Assembly: GCF_040183065.1 (NCBI RefSeq)
Contig: NC_091127.1
Span: 28,388,891-28,452,890 of the forward strand
Direction: 5' to 3'
DNA: 64,000 nt
Source of the DNA: Periplaneta americana
Taxonomy: Eukaryota; Arthropoda; Insecta; Blattodea; Blattidae
A program made the position numbers and the translations under genes. The notes under the pieces were generated by a model. That model had not been told where the DNA came from. It saw nothing but the letters and a program-made list of their open reading frames with translations, and made no database searches. Positions 346 through 63,880 of this stretch are shown one piece after another (position 1 is the first letter of the stretch; each line of letters begins with the position of its first letter).

Positions 346-1300
346 CCATAGGGCACGATTCGATGTTCTTGATGAAATAAAAGACGAAATTATATATTGG
401 ATTATTTAAACAGAAACCAATGTCATATTGACGTTATTGTGGAAAAAGGGGATTCTTTTGAAGAATTCGGGGATATGAAATTAAAGATTTCTTCTGTCCA
501 AAGAAACCGTGTGATGGTTATTGAATGAAATGTATGAAAGTTTGGAATTTACTAATAATCGAAATAATCTCGTCTCATCTATGAATAAATATTAACTAGG
601 TTAAGACCGTACAATACAGGAAAATTTAACATTATGATTAGTGTTATGTCTAACATTCATCGTACCTTGGCACCGGTACAATAATAGGGGGTCGCAAACT
701 GAAGTCTAGAGGTCCATTAACAATGAAAATTAAACATAACCTAACATAAACACAGATGTTTGCCGTCAAGTTATCAAATCGGATCATTCACAATGATTCA
801 CATAAACACTGACATTAACATTACCGTTCGACGTTAACATGAAAGTTTTCGAACTCCAAACTTTCATGCTTATGCTTACATGTTTTGCAAACAGAACTCA
901 ATCGTGGAACGCTGATGTATACGACAGAATATGGGGAAATGGCGTCGTTGTTATGTTTCCATGGTTACCAAGTATCTTTGCAGTTATGTTTATGTCCCCA
1001 TCATTGATGATGTGATTTTACCGTAACGTTTACATTCTTAAGTTAACGCTTACGTTATGTTTAATTTTAATTGTGAATGGGCCTTAGCCCACAAAATGTT
1101 TGGGAACCACTGCTTTGCTGTATTTCTTATGTGTGTCTATCCATCTGTTTTGAGTTCTGTTAATGAATTATATACGTCTTGATTACACAAATGTTAACAC
1201 GAATTTATATGTGTGAACTTTGGAATTCTGTGTAGTAATCCTTTCCAAACAATTTAGTGCACCTGAAACATTTCTGCTTCCTTTAATATGTTATTGTATA
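345..1300. other. AT-rich spacer, no gene recognised
   Basis: No recognisable coding region, RNA gene or transposon end. The DNA is AT-rich with stops in all frames. It contains loosely repeated words such as TTAACGTTAACATGAAAGTT around 780-1060, which may be a decayed repeat. Confidence 0.6.
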
Positions 1301-2263
1301 CTAGCCGTACCCGTGCGCTCCGCTGCACCCGTTAGAAATAAATATAAAGTAATTACATAATTAAAATAGGACATTTGATCCAGGGAACATTCGTGTTTGA
1401 TAGAAGGATAAATCGTTTATTATGTTACTTAATTTAAATTGTATTTACATAATTAAAATGCGATCATTTTGATCCAGAGACCACTTATTTGGTCATAAAA
1501 ATTATTTTAGGAAATACAGGAAACGAATGTACAGAATAGCCTATCAAGTTTTCTGTGCATAAGAAGCTATTTTAATCTTACCTGTCCTCGATTCACTCAG
1601 AAATTACTGTAATAACATTATAGCATTATGTCCATCTAGAGAAACTACACTTTCCAATGGTGAAATAATAATTAATTATACAAATCGGTTAATTTAGCTT
1701 CCGATATTACTTCATACAAATACAGAAACATTATCTATAGACTATCTTTCACAGCTTTCGATTGTTGCTGTCCAAGGCCCCTTATAGACGAAGTCATTTG
1801 TTTTTTAATTCATTACACGGCCTTAGATGGCAGTTATTTTAATTTTAAAACTCATTTATCTCATTAAATATCAGTCCTATCAAAATTTTTTAAAGAATAA
1901 AACTTATCGAAAATTATTTTTAAAGAAACGTTTGTTATGTAACATTTTTCATAAAAATCAATAATAAGCGAGATATTTCGATTTATTTAATTCAGGCCCC
2001 CTTATAACCCCCGTTTTAAATAATGTATTTTGAATGCCATATAGCCTAAAATCTAAGTTACAACGAACTTAATTTATATTCCAATTTTCATCGAAATCCG
2101 TTCAGCCATTATAGCGTGAAAAGGTAACAGATAGACAGACAAAAATTTCAAAAAAGCGATTTTCGGTTTCAGGGTGATTAATTATATATGTTAGGACCAA
2201 TTATTTTTGGAAAATCGAAAATTACCAGAAAAATTTCGGCTACAGATTTATTATTAGTATAGA
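1301..2263 (-). mobile_element. Non-autonomous Helitron, copy 1
   Basis: Read on the minus strand the element begins TCTATACTAATAATAAATCT and ends GGGTACGGCTAG. It sits between an A and a T, leaving no target duplication. TC start, CTRR end and insertion between A and T are the known rules for Helitrons, and a short palindrome (GTGC, 8-nt loop, GCAC) lies eight bases before the terminal CTAG. Four copies in this window share both ends exactly. No Rep/helicase frame is present, so it is non-autonomous. Length 963 bp. Its internal segment around 1490-1600 matches the copy at 61323 and not the other two. An alternative reading is a LINE 3'-end relic, but the constant A/T flanks at all four loci favour Helitron. 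Confidence 0.78.
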
Positions 2264-2924
2264 TATCATTTTTAATATTAAATGTGATTTTTACATAGAG
2301 ATAAGAATATTTGTTGCCAATTCACAGTATAGGCCTGGTCATTGTTTAATTCTGTTGAAGTGCACAAGATTATGAAACAAAATTGAATTTTCAACCGTGT
2401 ATTGAGGTTTCCAGCCTCTCAAATTTCGATTCTACTAAGTTAAATCGTCCCATGTAACTAAATACTCGAGACAATTAGTGCTGGTTAGATGTCTCACTTC
2501 ATCTGTATTACGCACTTATGAAGACACCGATATGCATTTTTGTGAACTAAGAGTAATAAAATAAAATTCACAAGCTAAAAAAAAGTGTCTATGTATTTAT
2601 CGACGCATATCGGACCATCTAGGACATTAATACACGTTCTTCTTCAGAATCCATCTGAAATAAATGGCGGCCTTTTAAATCATTCCACCTCTGACAGTTC
2701 CGGAGCGTGCATTCTTTTTTATCGAGAGAATAACTCATTTTAACAATAGTAACTACGTCTAAGAGAAGTCACTGGACAGTACAATGAACACGATAACTCA
2801 ACATTTATCAGATTGCGATCATCTTCTGGCTTAGAAAGATGATTTCCTGACCAACGAAATAGATGAACACAATTACTCAACGCTGCATAGAAAGTAATTT
2901 ATGTATTAATTATTTGAATAATTT
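2264..2924. other. AT-rich spacer, no gene recognised
   Basis: Stops in all frames and no transposon ends that I could pair. Nothing supportable seen. Confidence 0.5.
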
Positions 2925-3235
2925 CAAGGGAAAAATTGTTCCGGGGCCGCGTATCGATCCCAGGACCTCTGGTTGAACGTACCAGCGCTCTACCACTGAG
3001 CTACCCGGGAACTCCACCCGACACCGTCTCAACTTTTCCCTTTATATCCACACAACTCGCGTGGGCTGACGAAACGCCAGAGACCCACAACGAGTGCACA
3101 CAATCTCTGTGTGACTTGGAATTGTGGTTTTCTGTTAACGTACACAGTAACGTATATATTATGCAAATCTAGTCTTTCAGGTAAAGCTCCCTGTAAAGCA
3201 GATTTGAATAATTTCAAGGGAAAAATTGTTCCGGG
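2925..3235 (-). mobile_element. tRNA-derived SINE (family D), minus copy of a palindromic pair
   Basis: The minus strand reads through a tRNA-like head at about 2943-3016: an A-box-like TAGCTCAGTGGTAGAGC, an anticodon-like stem CTGGT/ACCAG and a B-box-like GGGATCGATAC. The body ends in the segment GGAACAATTTTTCCCTTGAA and then a stretch ending AGACTAGATTTGCATAA. A second unit follows head to head on the plus strand, so the locus is a large inverted repeat. The head resembles a tRNA-Asn-like anticodon loop, but it is embedded in a repeat and is not a functional tRNA gene. Confidence 0.7.
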
Positions 3236-3445
3236 GCCCACGCGAGTTGTGTGGATATAAAGGGAAAAGTTGGGACGGTGTCGGGTGGAGTTCCCGGGTA
3301 GCTCAGTGGTAGAGCGCTGGTACGTTCAACCAGAGGTCCCGGGATCGATACCCGGCCCGGAACAATTTTTCCCTTGAAATTATTCAAATCTGCTTTACAG
3401 GGAGCTTTATCTGAAAGACTAGATTTGCATAATATATTAATTATT
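3207..3445 (+). mobile_element. tRNA-derived SINE (family D), plus copy of a palindromic pair
   Basis: The tRNA-like head is at 3293-3361: TAGCTCAGTGGTAGAGC (A box), perfect 5-bp anticodon stem CTGGT/ACCAG, and GGGATCGATACCC (B box). Body and 3' segment match the minus copy just upstream and the pair at 40.7-41.1 kb. The GGGCCC junction near 3235 joins the two units, so the first unit's right end and this unit's left end overlap. Confidence 0.72.
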
Positions 3446-3837
3446 GTTAGTCACCATTGTCGTCATCATCATAATAATCTTGATTGTTCCGGACTCTTAT
3501 TCAGAATCATTGCTTAAAACATTTTGTAACATACACAAGAATGGTCTTTTGGTAGTTATATCTTGGTCAACGATAAGTAGACCTAAATATTTTGAATATC
3601 GGTATATGTTTTGTGATTTATATAATAGCGCATACTGTGACATGCCTTTGGACAGAAAACTGAATGAAAGGAATTTTAAAGGCATGTTATAGATCTATAG
3701 ATTCCGATAAGCTAAGATATAGGAATTAAATTAATATTATGTATTTGCCGTCTTAGCTTATCAAATGCTAAGTGAAAATTTATTCACTAAGTTAGCATAA
3801 TTTGTAAGACGATATTACATCCATGAATGTTTTCGGC

Positions 3838-4280
3838 AATGATGATACTGTTTTATTTTTTAGTGGAAAAACTTGGACTGATGCTTATTGTAATGCAAAT
3901 TTCTGGCTTAAAAAAATAAAATATGGTTCGATTTAAATTCACTTGTAATTAATAAAGATAAAACAATAGCTATCCTGTTTTCTTTAAATAATAAAGGTAA
4001 TAAATCAATTTCATCTACAATAAAAATTAAAATAGATAATTTTGATTGTTCCGATATAAATTGCAATTGTTCAGTTATTAATGAAGTTAAGGAGGTTAAA
4101 TACATAGGTATAATTATTGATAATCATTTAAAATGGAAGAATCATATTCATTATATTTGTAATAAATTACGTAAAACATTATATTACTTTGTTGTTCTAA
4201 GAAATATTTTGTCAATTAACGGTTTACGTATAATTTATTTAGCATTATTTCAATCTATATTTATGTATGGTTCTTACGCG
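3838..4280 (+). pseudogene. Old LINE reverse transcriptase, first fragment
   Basis: Translation gives an eroded polymerase core NDDTVLFFSGKTW (the usual F/YADD has become NDD). After one frameshift near 3925 it continues with VKYIGIIIDNHLKWKNHI and a thumb-like region ending FQSIFMYG. These are the motif C and thumb landmarks of jockey/CR1-type non-LTR retrotransposons. The same protein continues at 4389-4558 and 5360-5580, so this is one element broken by two later insertions. Stops and the frameshift make it non-functional. The 5' end is missing upstream of motif C. Confidence 0.72.
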
Positions 4281-4388
4281 GAGTAGCTCACCGCGTGAGA
4301 CAAATAGAGCTCTCCCTCTATAGGAGGAGGCCTTTGCCCTTAACGGGACATTTTTAGGCTAATCATTTCATTTCATCATTTCATTATA
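4281..4388 (+). mobile_element. Short SINE with RTE-like tail, inserted in the old LINE
   Basis: A head with GTAGCTCACCGCGTGAGAC is followed by AGGAGGCCTTTGCCC, GGGACATTTTTAGGC and TCATT repeats. That tail resembles the 3' end of RTE-clade LINEs found in many insects (recalled, not searched). It interrupts the LINE frame: FMYG lies just before and IGWGGTYKSNLYPLIL just after. A clear target duplication was not found. Confidence 0.55.
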
Positions 4389-4558
4389 GGTTGGGGTGGA
4401 ACTTATAAATCCAACCTATATCCGTTAATTTTACTACAGAAAAAAGTACTAACAATTTGTTTAAAAAAAAAGCGGAAAAATTACCCAACTGAATTGTTGT
4501 TTAAACATTTCAAAGTTTTCAACATTAAACAAATTTATTATTTTATTGTATTAAAATA
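4389..4558 (+). pseudogene. Old LINE reverse transcriptase, middle fragment
   Basis: Frame reads IGWGGTYKSNLYPLILLQKK, then a lysine-rich stretch and FKVFNIKQIYYFIVLKY. This is the post-polymerase region typical of CR1/jockey-like LINEs, continuing from the piece before the SINE. The last 15 bases are the target site of the younger LINE that follows. Confidence 0.68.
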
Positions 4559-5344
4559 CGGAAATTTTACTTGAAGCAAGTAGAGCGATCGGTTTGGAAG
4601 TAAATCCCGAAAAGACAAAGTATATGATTATGTCTCGTGACCAGAATATTGTACGAAATGGAAATATAAAAATTGGAGATTTATCCTTCGAAGAGGTGGA
4701 AAAATTCAAATATCTTGGAGCAACAGTAACAAATATAAATGACACTCGGGAGGAAATTAAACGCAGAATAAATATGGGAAATGCGTGTTATTATTCGGTT
4801 GAGAAGCTCTTATCATCCAGTCTGCTGTCCAAAAATCTGAAAGTTAGAATTTATAAAACAGTTATATTACCGGTTGTTCTGTATGGTTGTAAAACTTGGA
4901 CTCTCACTCTGAGAGAGGAACATAGGTTAAGGGTGTTTGAGAATAAGGTGCTTAGGAAAATATTTGGGGCTAAGCGGGATGAAGTTACAGGAGAATGGAG
5001 AAAGTTACACAACACAGAACTGCACGCATTGTATTCTTCACCTGACATAATTAGGAACATTAAATCCAGACGTTTGAGATGGGCAGGGCATGTAGCACGT
5101 ATGGGCGAATCCAGAAATGCATATAGAGTGTTAGTTGGGAGACCGGAGGGAAAAAGACCTTTAGGAAGGCCGAGACGTAGATGGGAGGATAATATTAAAA
5201 TGGATTTGAGGGAGGTGGGGTATGATGATAGAGACTGGATTAATCTTGCACAGGATAGGGACCGATGGCGGGCTTATGTGAGGGCGGCAATGAACCTTCG
5301 GATTCCTTAAAAGCCATTTGTAAGTAAGTAAGTAAGTAAGTAAG
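4559..5344 (+). mobile_element. 5'-truncated GTAA-tailed LINE (family P) with 15-bp target duplication
   Basis: The insert is flanked by a perfect direct repeat TATTGTATTAAAATA at 4544-4558 and 5345-5359. It begins inside the reverse transcriptase just after motif C and ends in a run of GTAA units, the family's 3' tail. Truncation at the 5' end, simple-repeat tail and target duplication are the hallmarks of target-primed reverse transcription. The empty-site frame of the old LINE rejoins exactly across it, so the order of events is certain. Confidence 0.93.
4594..5310 (+). pseudogene. LINE family P reverse transcriptase C-terminal part (uninterrupted, 5'-truncated)
   Basis: A 238-residue open frame whose first codon is TTG; the frame is actually open from the element's 5' edge at 4559. 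It covers the region after the YADD box: [27 protein letters not shown], the thumb with [11 protein letters not shown], and the C-terminal block with [28 protein letters not shown] and AYVRAAMNLR. It is the best preserved copy of this domain in the window. The catalytic palm is missing, so it cannot work as a polymerase. The GHVxRM and GRPxxRW landmarks are typical of RTE/craTA-like insect LINEs. Confidence 0.85.
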
Positions 5345-57911: not shown

Positions 57912-58164
57912 TCTTTTTTATGTCATGTAAACTTGACTCTTGACCAAAGTTTTTAGACACCCGGTAGTCAGTTTTTTCTGCCATGTAAAGTTGACCCTTG
58001 ACCAAAGTTTTCAGACACCCGGTAGTCATTTTTTCTGCCATGTAAACTTGACCCTTGACCAAAGCTTTCAGACACCCGGCAGTCGGTTTTTTCTGCCATG
58101 TAAACTTGACCCATGACCAAAGTTTTCAGACACCCGGTAGTCGGTTTTTTCTGCCATGTAAACT
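57912..58164 (-). repeat. 58-bp satellite, inverted left array
   Basis: About 4.5 units in the orientation opposite to the large array at 62755. Unit landmarks: CTGCCATGTAAACTTGACC, TTGACCAAAGTTTT, GACACCCGGTAGTC. More diverged between units than the right array. It starts directly after the LINE tail. Confidence 0.95.
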
Positions 58165-58716
58165 GGATCCGTGGACACATGTAGGCGCTGGGTCACAACC
58201 GCCGTCGCGTTGAGTGTAGCCCTCGGCGTCATCGAGGCAGCTGCGTGCTTCGGTCCTCCCTACCGAATAAATTACGGCATGGTGCCAAATATCACATAAT
58301 TCCATAATTGCGGGATATTTTGTAGGCTCGGTCCCCTAACGCAATTTTGATATCGCAGTGAACAGTTGAAGGAGATCAATGTTTGTGGGTCACTGCGTTT
58401 ATAGTGTTCGTTAAAATTGGAGTTCCTGTTGGTTGTTGAGATACGATATCGAATAACATCTTCAAACCGATATCACAGTCTACTATATACAGTCGCGAAG
58501 CTTGAGGTGTTTTTTTTTTTTTTGCAAATCTCGTGATAAAGCGCTCCAAGTGGTTAGCAACTAGAAACAATAGACTGTCCATGGTTGACTTTGGACTGTG
58601 TCGTATTTCTATCGAGTGCTAGCTCCTTGCGTATTTCACATTGATGCTTGTGAAATGTTCGTTATTGGTTATAATGAAAATGTTAATGGCTAAAATATAA
58701 TAATTGGAATAATAAT

Positions 58717-58863
58717 ATGGGACAAGGAGGAGACGTTTGTAATGCTATAAACTGTAGCAACAGTAAGAGAAAGAGGCCAGAGTTATCCTTTTTCCGGTTT
58801 CCGAAAGATTCAGAAAGGTTCCTGGGTTTCCACAAGAATGCTGTGCAGAAACAAAACTGTTAA
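58717..58863 (+). pseudogene. THAP zinc-finger N-terminus of a P-like transposase
   Basis: A 48-residue ATG-started frame: MGQGGDVCNAINCSNSKRKR, then PELSFFRFPKDSERFL. THAP domains begin with C-x2-4-C and have an FxRFPK(D) block; here C8-x4-C13 and FFRFPKD at residues 25-31. The rest of the domain (Trp, the CxxH pair and AVPTIF box) is not found; the reading diverges after SER and stops at 58861. It would bind the element's ends in an intact transposase. Alternative: a captured host THAP exon, less likely because it sits at the proper 5' place within P-like ends. Confidence 0.75.
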
Positions 58864-59002
58864 TTTGAAGTTCTTTGTGACTGTTAGAATACATTATATC
58901 CTTAAATTTCACAATGAAATGTTTCAGTCTAACCGAAAGGACATTAGATACCGGTTAAAGTTCTGTCACTTAGGCTGCTAAATTTCCAGAGAAATGAATG
59001 TT

Positions 59003-59325
59003 AGGTCTACTTTTTTTTCAGAGGATATATTTTTAATTGTAGCTATTAATTTTGTTATTACTTTTATGTGTTACTTTACTAAAGACGTAGAAAAACCTAA
59101 GTTTGTTTTAATGAAATTTATTGATCACGTTTTATTTTCAATTCCGGTGGGATTATTATTGCTTAGGCCTACTTTTTTCTTCAAAGGATATGTTTTTAAT
59201 TATAGCTGTTAATTTTGTTGTTATTTTTATTTGTTGCTTTACTAGAGACTTAGAAATAGTCTGTTACAATAACATTTATTGATCACGTTTTATTTCCAAT
59301 TCTGGTGTGATTATTATTGCTTAAC
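59003..59325. repeat. Diverged tandem duplication, about 165-bp period
   Basis: GTAGCTATTAATTTTGTTAT at about 59038 recurs as ATAGCTGTTAATTTTGTTGT at about 59203, and TTTATTGATCACGTTTTATT at 59117 and 59275. It lies inside the P-like element. Confidence 0.88.
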
Positions 59326-59816
59326 CTCATTCCACTTTGTTAACTACGTAAGCCTACACTACAAGTACCAGTACACGTAAGTTACTCCATTAATTCATAT
59401 TTCCATTATTATTGTTGTAAAGGGAAATGCAAATTAATCTTTATTGGTTTCATAGTTAATTATCGCTATAATCTTGAATGAGTGAAGCGATTATAGTAAA
59501 TTTCAGTTCGTTTTGCACAAACAAAAATTATATTAACTTATTTCTTGCAGGTATCTTCGAGTTTATGGTGGAATTTAATATACTTCATTAAAATAATAAA
59601 TTAACTTTATGCATTTAATATTTCAATAATGGAAGGAAGGTGTTAATTTTTCCAAAAGAAGACGACAACGAAAGTGTAACATATTTTTCGGCTGCTAGGA
59701 AAGAGATCTGCGATGATGAGGCGATAGTAGCGATCCTAGTGGTGGGCAACTACCCATGTTTGCATTTTTACTACATATTGAGCTTCGCGACTGTATATAG
59801 TAGACTGTGCCGATAT

Positions 59817-62306: not shown

Positions 62307-62754
62307 TCCAAAATAAGATTTTAAGCAATAGTTTTTTTTTTGTATTTTCCGAAAGAAATTAAAAAACAATTACGACAGTCACAGATGGATATTGAATCCA
62401 CTTTTGGAGAGATGCATTCACCTGGGGGAAAATTAATTGAAATAATATGTAGGCCTACCTATTGATGGAATATTGGAACTAGACCTTTTCTCGCAGTACA
62501 TAGACAAGTTTTATATAGGAAGTAAAGCGCACGAATGTGCATAAAGATAGTATAATAGTTTAACAGTTTTCCTTGCGGTATTCACTTAGTTTTTTTTGCG
62601 TTTTAAATACTTATAATGGTACCTTTCACATAGATTCTCATATAGTTCACACACTTTCACTTGGATTATGGAAATATTTTTTTTTGCAGAATTTATGGTG
62701 GTAGCCAAGTACTGCTAGTTCAGTGATCGCGCTTTTTAATTCCTGATTGGTCAA
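62307..62754. other. Spacer between Helitron and satellite
   Basis: No feature recognised. Confidence 0.45.
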
Positions 62755-63490
62755 GTGTCAAGTTTACATGGCAGAAAAAACTGACTACCGGGTGTCTAAA
62801 AACTTTGGTCAAGGGTCAAGTTTACATGGCAGAAAAAACTGACTACCGGGTGTCTAAAACTTTGGTCAAGAGTCAAGTTTACATGGCAGAAAAAACTGAC
62901 TACCGGGTGTCTAAAAACTTTGGTCAAGGGTCAAGTTTACATGGCAGAAAAAACTGACTACCGGGTGTCTAAAAATTGTCAAGGGTCAAGTTTACATGGC
63001 AGAAAAAACTGACTACCGGGTGTCTAAAAACTTTGGTCAAGGGTCAAGTTTACATGGCAGAAAAAACTGACTACCGGGTGTCTAAAACTTTGGTCAAGAG
63101 TCAAGTTTACATGGCAGAAAAAACTGACTACCGGGTGTCTAAAAACTTTGGTCAAGGGTCAAGTTTACATGGCAGAAAAAACTGACTACCGGGTGTCTAA
63201 AACTTTGGTCAAGGGTCAAGTTTATATGGCAGAAAAAACTGACTACCGGGTGTCTAAAAACTTTGGTCAAAGGTCAAGTTTACATGGCAGAAAAAACTGA
63301 CTACCGGGTGTCTAAAAATTGTCAAGGGTCAAGTTTACATGGCAGAAAAAACTGACTACCGGGTGTCTAGAAACTTTGTCAAAGGTCAAGTTTACATGGC
63401 AGAAAAAACTGACTACCGGGTGTCTAAAAACTTTGGTCAAGGGTCAAGTTTACATGGCAGAAAAAACTGACTACCGGGTGTCTAAAAACT
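62755..63490 (+). repeat. 58-bp satellite, main array
   Basis: About 13 units, 55-59 bp each: GTCAAGTTTACATGGCAGAA, AAAACTGACTACCGGGTGTC, TAAAAACTTTGGTCAAGG. Two units have the shorter AAAAATTGTCAAGG variant, and the AAGAGTC variant appears in units 2 and 6, suggesting a four-unit (about 229-bp) higher-order repeat. The frames FTWQKKLTTGCLKTLVKGQV-type are by-products. Confidence 0.97.
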
Positions 63491-63880
63491 TAAGTCTAGT
63501 TTCGATTAACCATGGTATCAGTTGGATAAAACTCCTACCAGATCTCTTATCTCTTCTGTCTCCTTGTTCGTAGCAGTTCTTGCTCTTGGGGTGTAGATAG
63601 TTATTCGGATGTCCTCAACAAGAAAGTTCTCCCTCGCTAACTCGTAAGCAAAGCGGGAAGGTGTCTATTTTGAGATTACTAGCGTTCTCTTGAGATATCT
63701 TGCCTTTGTACTGTCTATTAGAAAAGTTTTATAACAAAAGAATATCTCGAACTTGCAAAAGAAGGTCTTAAATTTTTGATAACATTAGCAACCTCGTACT
63801 TATTTTGTATAAGTTTCTTGTCTACGATTTCCATCAAAAACAATAGCGAGAAATCTCCTTTAACTTCAAAATGGTATCAC
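63491..63880. other. Spacer, no gene recognised
   Basis: Nothing supportable. Confidence 0.45.

What the first reader, a model, noticed from the sequence alone, without database searches (positions are those of the whole stretch)
58474..59809. P-superfamily-like transposon with THAP start and 7-bp target duplication
Seen: 29-bp perfect inverted ends, a perfect CCGATAT duplication immediately outside both ends, and an interior ATG frame with C-x4-C and FFRFPKD, too short to be picked up by ordinary ORF scans. Known: THAP domains open P-element transposases. Inference: this is a deletion derivative of a P-like family in what appears to be a cockroach, where such elements are little described to my knowledge. 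The autonomous parent should exist elsewhere in the genome.
Basis: partly seen in the sequence, partly recalled or inferred. Interest (0 to 1): 0.82.

Follow-up and report, generated by a model that had tools for sequence, protein, structure and literature searches.

The report
Gutted P-element transposon in cockroach
This stretch is an internally deleted copy of a P-element-type jumping gene, very probably in the American cockroach, one of many such shrunken copies, and a full-length but broken parent was found on another chromosome.

Summary
Window 58474-59809 has perfect 29-bp inverted ends, a perfect 7-bp duplication (CCGATAT) and a frame that begins like a THAP domain (Pfam E 1e-4, just under the curated cut-off). 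Assembly statistics match Periplaneta americana PAMFEO1_priV1. Of 26 end pairs examined, 22 have exact 7-bp duplications. The predicted parent was found: a 4,770-bp element on contig C4 with the same ends and duplication GTATTAC, coding THAP, P-type helix-turn-helix, RNase H and GTP-binding insertion domains, related to the solved Drosophila P transposase (6p5a). The window copy lacks 2,974 bp of it: exon 1 is fused to the last codons of the transposase across a 2-bp overlap. The C4 copy is broken; the only other candidate seen is a decayed relative on C7. Genome-wide pattern counts: 1,973 window-type junctions, 1,701 of a 0.96-kb class, 17,568 signatures of a ~182-bp class, 40,003 end sequences. 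It is an ordinary P-superfamily deletion derivative, presumably moved in trans. The lopsided ratio of derivatives to coding copies is the notable part. It is neither Galileo nor a canonical P element.

The parts
58467..58473 (.). left target-site duplication CCGATAT
58474..58502 (+). left terminal inverted repeat, 29 bp, CACAG...
   Evidence: perfect inverse of 59781-59809; 40,003 sites genome-wide with <=2 mismatches
58717..58863 (+). 48-aa frame that starts as a THAP domain: transposase exon 1 (to 58817) plus read-through across the deletion junction to a stop
   Evidence: THAP E 1e-4 (under cut-off); copy consensus and parent 98% identical over 50 codons (exon 1 and 16 codons before it)
58818..58819 (+). 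deletion junction (2-bp overlap GT); 2,974 bp of the parent are missing here
   Evidence: 58474-58819 = parent 96-428 and 58818-59323 = parent 3401-3910 (script coordinates); 1,973 sites with the junction 36-mer, <=3 mismatches, control 0
58818..58981 (+). remnant of the transposase C-terminus, ending FCHLGC and stop, not in frame with the THAP start
   Evidence: tblastx to sister and parent C-termini; stop position
59001..59323 (+). two tandem copies of a ~163-bp unit in the 3' non-coding part; about five units in the parent (estimated from length)
   Evidence: TRF, 163 x 2.0; parent 3585-4379
59324..59780 (+). rest of the parent's 3' non-coding end
   Evidence: 59001-59809 = parent 4070-4865 at 93%
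59781..59809 (-). right terminal inverted repeat, 29 bp
59810..59816 (.). right target-site duplication CCGATAT

Best explanation
The window holds a non-autonomous, internally deleted copy of a P-superfamily cut-and-paste DNA transposon, very probably of Periplaneta americana. An element like the 4,770-bp one on contig C4 lost 2,974 bp between the end of THAP exon 1 and the last codons of the transposase. The product kept both ends and now stands at about 2,000 places. It was presumably moved in trans by transposase from full-length relatives acting on the shared 29-bp ends, with insertion at GTnnnAC-like 7-bp targets. Shown: ends, duplications, parent, deletion junction, pattern counts. Inferred: movement in trans by P-type (GTP-dependent, DDE) chemistry, and that the suppliers of transposase are now broken or gone from this assembly.
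For: 29-bp TIR and 7-bp duplication. Exact 7-bp duplication in 22 of 26 end pairs and 5 of 7 further copies. Parent C4:122404186-122408955, minus strand: TIRs with 2 and 1 mismatches and perfect GTATTAC duplication. Copy consensus is 94.7% identical to the parent's left 333 bp and 95.3% over the ~510 bp after the junction. Parent pieces: THAP 5.5e-19 (exon 1 joined to exon 2), Tnp_P_element 1.1e-5, TNP-like RNaseH_N 3.3e-31, GTP-binding insertion 1.2e-15, RNaseH_C 6.1e-10. P transposase 6p5a at 2.9e-16. The residues that align with D230, D303 and E531 are acidic in the parent (by way of the sister protein; residue numbers from PMC7776569). Junction counts.
Against: No intact full-length copy was seen: homology of the C4 copy to the sister transposase is split over three frames. 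Its intron is read from splice-like signals and homology, not from RNA. No coiled coil was shown. Which transposase mobilised the copies is not shown. The window frame alone scores just under the Pfam THAP cut-off. Four of 26 and two of 7 end pairs lack an exact duplication. Of 29 sites that keep the undeleted exon 1 joint, 27 were not examined.
Confidence: 0.95

Rival explanations
1. The derivatives were spread mainly by a sister P family (L071 clade, transposase 58-61% identical) that cross-recognises the ends, not by the direct parent.
For: L071 has a left end that matches the 29-bp TIR at 79% and an open 865-aa exon-2 frame; 5 of the 7 places belong to it (compare).
Against: Its right end was not found within about 3.2 kb downstream of the stop codon, and the residue aligned with catalytic E531 is Lys in L071 but Glu in the parent. 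The window-type copies match the parent, not the sister, at 93-95% DNA identity.
Confidence: 0.15
2. It encodes a KP-like truncated repressor (THAP-only protein) kept by selection.
For: The consensus of 25 copies keeps the ATG and the 48-aa frame; Drosophila has repressor-making deletion derivatives (recalled).
Against: The frame lacks the second half of the zinc site (no C-x2-H). Distinct changes in the frame among 25 copies are 16 synonymous and 42 nonsynonymous, against 82:350 possible single changes; counted per copy they are 31 and 49, with one stop. The excess of synonymous changes is small and no correction for transition bias was made.
Confidence: 0.04
3. A non-P transposon that captured a THAP fragment.
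For: THAP domains occur in several transposon classes (recalled).
Against: A full-length copy with the same ends and a perfect flanking duplication encodes a P-type transposase; duplication length and GTnnnAC-like target fit the P superfamily.
Confidence: 0.01

Closest known systems
Internally deleted P elements of Drosophila (0.5-2.8 kb) and zebrafish Pdre elements
   Same: Deletion derivatives of a THAP/RNase H/GTP-binding P transposon that keep the ends (PMC7776569 and PMC10983969, passages seen).
   Different: 7-bp rather than 8-bp duplication; no intact master seen here; thousands of copies.
P-MITEs of Anopheles gambiae
   Same: Short families that share ends with P masters and outnumber them (PMC1562414, passages seen: 44-571 copies against 3-41 per P subfamily).
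   Different: There: 8-bp duplications and, in the six consensus sequences described, a central part unrelated to P. Here the interior of the window type comes from the parent, and one class alone has 17,568 signature sites, in a genome roughly ten times larger (recalled size).
Galileo (P superfamily, Drosophila)
   Same: 7-bp duplication; consensus GTANTAC/GTATTAC, and the C4 parent's is GTATTAC; palindromic target motif (PMC4168063, passages seen).
   Different: Galileo has long internally repetitive TIRs (PMC3573991, start of abstract) and no introns (PMC10990002, passages); here TIRs are 29 bp and an apparent intron splits THAP.

Membership tests
P superfamily | transposase with N-terminal THAP domain | tested here: met
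   parent exon 1 joined to exon 2, E 5.5e-19, full model 1-87
P superfamily | P-type HTH and RNase H domain with GTP-binding insertion | tested here: met
   PF12017, PF21787, PF21788, PF21789 above cut-off on parent pieces; 6p5a, 2.9e-16
P superfamily | three catalytic acidic residues (D230, D303, E531) | tested here: met
   parent LSLDEI, VCDQG, NQDGLENFF, aligned through the sister, whose alignment to 6p5a is; the sister itself has Lys at the third place
P superfamily | 7- or 8-bp target duplication at a palindromic GT...AC target | tested here: met
   22 of 26 exact 7-bp; T at position 2 in 20 of 26, A at 6 in 24 of 26, C or T at 7 in 25 of 26; position 1 is G in only 7 of 26
P superfamily | coiled coil next to THAP | tested here: inconclusive
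   the 120-aa piece L082:2801-3160 gave only matches below cut-off
P superfamily | GTP-dependent excision with long staggered cut | not testable with these tools
   biochemistry
canonical Drosophila P element | 8-bp duplication and 31-bp TIR (PMC7776569) | tested here: not met
   7-bp and 29-bp
Galileo | 7-bp duplication GTANTAC | tested here: met
   parent GTATTAC; the window's CCGATAT is only a loose match
Galileo | long, internally repetitive TIRs | tested here: not met
   29-bp TIRs
Galileo | transposase gene without introns | tested here: inconclusive
   splice-like signals inside THAP in parent and sister; no RNA evidence
MITE | short (50-500 bp, PMC10990002), no functional transposase | tested here: not met
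   window copy is 1,336 bp and keeps coding remnants; elements of the ~182-bp class fit (176-186 bp in the 5 with both ends)

The most novel reading that the evidence does not exclude
One P-superfamily lineage has given rise to about 20,000 deletion derivatives of several size classes in a cockroach, while its transposase gene survives as one broken full-length copy and perhaps one decayed relative: the derivatives outlived, or helped to extinguish, their masters.
Probability: 0.45. Interest if true: 0.5.

Novelty: new member of a known kind. Interest (0 to 1): 0.4.

Why it matters
P elements are classic tools and models, best known from flies, mosquitoes and some vertebrates (recalled); a survey lists the P superfamily among those widespread in arthropods (PMC6327564, passages seen), so presence in a cockroach is not itself a surprise. 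What is added is a chain from a full-length parent to 1.33-kb, 1.17-kb, 0.96-kb and related 0.18-kb derivatives, with counts. It lets one ask which end sequences suffice for mobilisation and how a family spreads when coding copies are almost gone. The many short copies are also an annotation target: the assembly paper's repeat section names Tc1-Mariner and hAT as the main DNA elements and 'P element' does not occur in its main text.

Tried and rejected
Subtelomere-near copies (L059, L060, L061) looked like parents at first because P-type RNase H hits lie a few kb downstream of a near-complete copy. In them this element, without its last 15 bp, lies among 184-bp repeats, and the transposase nearby has a different THAP start; they were rejected. 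Two long end-to-end copies on C1 were not parents: L062 (3,043 bp) carries another inserted element and L063 (3,516 bp) an expanded ~160-bp tandem array. A THAP search (150 scored of 6,785 candidates) was followed only in its 8 best loci, which hold a different THAP. Inverted ends with 7- or 8-bp duplications were sought by script in eight P-type loci (L059-L061, L069-L073); only L072 gave a plausible pair, CAGGGCGGGTA, unlike these; L071 gave none. A KP-like repressor was weighed and judged unlikely. No structure prediction or fold search was run, because sequence matches were sufficient.

Limits: copies were the best BLAST matches to the window, so their distance from the consensus (0.83-1.66%) is biased low; seven copies chosen by exact ends gave 1.57-5.20%. 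Counts by pattern are sites, not proven elements; they allow 2 or 3 mismatches and miss older copies. The transposase searches scored 73 of 2,797 and 117 of 2,519 first-look candidates, so weak full-length copies may be missed.

Full report
Observation. The ATG frame 58717-58863 encodes 48 aa with C-x4-C and FFRFPKD. Pfam gives THAP at E 1e-4 (23.4 bits, curated cut-off 23.9), model positions 1-36 of 87.

Host. G000 has 3,231,669,367 bases in 91 contigs, and C6 is 188,082,718 bases long. The P. americana assembly paper PMC12774602 (passages and one section seen) gives 3.23 Gb, a scaffold count of 91 and N50 188.1 Mb. I infer that the window lies in that assembly; no call names it.

Copies. The window element as query gave 1,904 candidates, of which 40 were scored; 25 of these 40, the window copy included, match from base 1 to base 1336. 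From L001-L028, 25 loci with a single pair of ends were aligned to a 1,329-bp majority sequence and lie 0.83-1.66% from it (best matches, so biased low). Of 26 end pairs, 22 have an exact 7-bp duplication, 3 have one mismatch, 1 has five; other lengths do not fit. In seven further copies chosen by exact ends, 5 of 7 duplications are exact, L063 has one mismatch and L065 four. In eight ~300-bp stretches chosen around a variant end, 5 had both ends: 3 exact, L089 one mismatch, L088 four.

Target. Position 2 of the duplication is T in 20 of 26, position 6 A in 24 of 26, position 7 C or T in 25 of 26, position 1 G in only 7 of 26. Outside it, A stands at the third base to the left in 15 of 26 and T at the third base to the right in 18 of 26. 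This resembles the palindromic P-superfamily target (Galileo AANGT/ACNTT, P and 1360 ANAGT/ACTNT; PMC4168063, passages seen).

Parent. A search for the P-type RNase H domain listed 150 hits, the 150 scored of 2,964 candidates. A P element at L071 (C2) has a THAP exon 77% identical to the consensus frame over 30 aa, a similar left end, and a C-terminus that matches the window frame ending FCHLGC. Searching with its interior showed another kind, 58% identical, on C4. Stretches from C4 contain a complete element, C4:122404186-122408955 on the minus strand, 4,770 bp, with the same 29-bp ends (2 and 1 mismatches) and perfect GTATTAC duplications. It codes in pieces for THAP (5.5e-19 when exon 1 is followed by exon 2), P-type HTH (1.1e-5), RNase H N (3.3e-31), GTP-binding insertion (1.2e-15) and RNase H C (6.1e-10), and matches P transposase 6p5a at 2.9e-16, the other six chains listed being near 0.07. 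No coiled coil was shown: the piece between exon 2 and HTH gave only matches below cut-off. The copy is broken: homology to the sister runs through three frames, and the part between THAP and RNase H falls into separate open stretches.

How the window copy arose. Window 58474-58819 equals parent 96-428 and 58818-59323 equals parent 3401-3910, in script coordinates. So 2,974 bp are missing, with a 2-bp overlap at the joint, GT, which in the parent is the apparent splice donor after exon 1. The rest is 3' non-coding sequence with a ~163-bp tandem unit: two copies here, about five in the parent and about seventeen in L063 (numbers estimated from lengths).

Numbers. The 29-bp end with at most 2 mismatches: 40,003 sites, reversed control 0. 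One variant end, exact: 5,481. Window-type junction: 1,973. Junction of the 0.96-kb class: 1,701. Signature of the ~182-bp class: 17,568. 3' end 49-mer of the window type: 4,235. Undeleted exon 1/intron joint: 29, of which one exact, the C4 parent. One of the 29, at C7:173262202 (three mismatches), lies 0.8 kb before a transposase stretch 61% identical to the parent's over 282 residues with 12 stops; this may be a second, decayed full-length copy or a related subfamily; it was not fetched. The other 27 were not examined. With E at most 1e-60, one search listed 7 places: the parent, C7, and five of the sister family.

Size classes. Among the 100 listed exact ends, 70 form 35 facing pairs and 30 stay unpaired: 12 pairs of 958-976 bp, 15 of 1,317-1,343 bp, 3 of 1,154-1,172 bp, and single ones of 811, 1,252, 1,562, 3,043 and 3,516 bp; none of the 35 is full length. 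L066 (1.17-kb class) is a separate derivative that keeps the end of the intron and exon 2. The ~182-bp elements carry 33 bp of the parent's left end, a 16-bp piece from further in, and about 95 bp of its right end at 80-89% identity; this is less than the 93-95% of the window type, so they may stem from an older relative and not from this parent. Multiplying the three class counts by their lengths gives roughly 7 Mb, about 0.2% of the genome (my estimate), so the share is not extreme although the copy number is; P-MITEs make up 0.36% of the A. gambiae genome (PMC1562414).

Mechanism. Shown: anatomy, duplications, parent, deletion, pattern counts. Inferred: cut-and-paste in trans by P-type transposase on the shared ends. 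Deletion by incomplete gap repair after excision is the usual explanation for P derivatives (established knowledge, recalled); the short overlap fits but does not prove it.

Rivals. The sister family might have helped, but its right end was not found within about 3.2 kb of the stop and it has Lys where P transposase has catalytic Glu531 (residue from PMC7776569, passages seen). A selected THAP-only repressor is unlikely.

Novelty. A. gambiae P-MITE families have 44-571 copies and P subfamilies 3-41 (PMC1562414, passages seen). Deletion derivatives are standard for P elements, and a survey lists the P superfamily among those widespread in arthropods (PMC6327564, passages seen). This is a new member of a known kind, with a large and lopsided family. 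Paper searches on P elements in cockroaches: searches found 0 papers; the listings (15 of 20 shown; 15 of 62 shown) gave no cockroach P-element study by title. The library lacks most subscription papers and no repeat database was available, so the family may already be catalogued.

Noticed in passing
L059 (C9:2760000-2769500), L060 (C12:3737000-3746999), L061 (C15:177302500-177311499); also C5:890735 and C18:1252222 (not fetched): A copy of this element sits among 184-bp repeats near another P-type transposase gene, and the three fetched units are 98.3-99.0% identical in long pieces; they lie within 10 Mb of sequence ends, suggesting subtelomeric duplication.
   Followed up: partly
L071 1358-3955 minus strand (C2): Sister P transposase with an open 865-aa exon-2 frame has Lys where the catalytic Glu531 of P transposase aligns; a copy on C16 is 99% identical over the searched part. 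It could be a dead or co-opted transposase.
   Followed up: partly
L071 4626-4655, minus strand: A short palindrome CACAGTCTAATATATATCTATTAGACTGTG: two end-like sequences facing each other with nothing between.
   Followed up: no
window 57914-58164 and 62747-63491: Tandem arrays of what looks like the same ~58/115-bp unit in opposite orientations flank the region that holds the element, possibly a larger foldback-like structure of about 5.6 kb.
   Followed up: no
L062 about 331-2033: A 1.7-kb insert inside a family copy with its own inverted ends around TAGGTCATTAGAAAAAGGGCCCAA; class not determined.
   Followed up: no
L063 about 590-3390: The ~160-bp 3' unit is expanded to about seventeen copies (estimated) within one element, a possible seed of satellite DNA.
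   Followed up: no
L072 1857-5105: A P-type element with ends CAGGGCGGGTA and a 7-bp duplication with one mismatch: a further cockroach P family.
   Followed up: no
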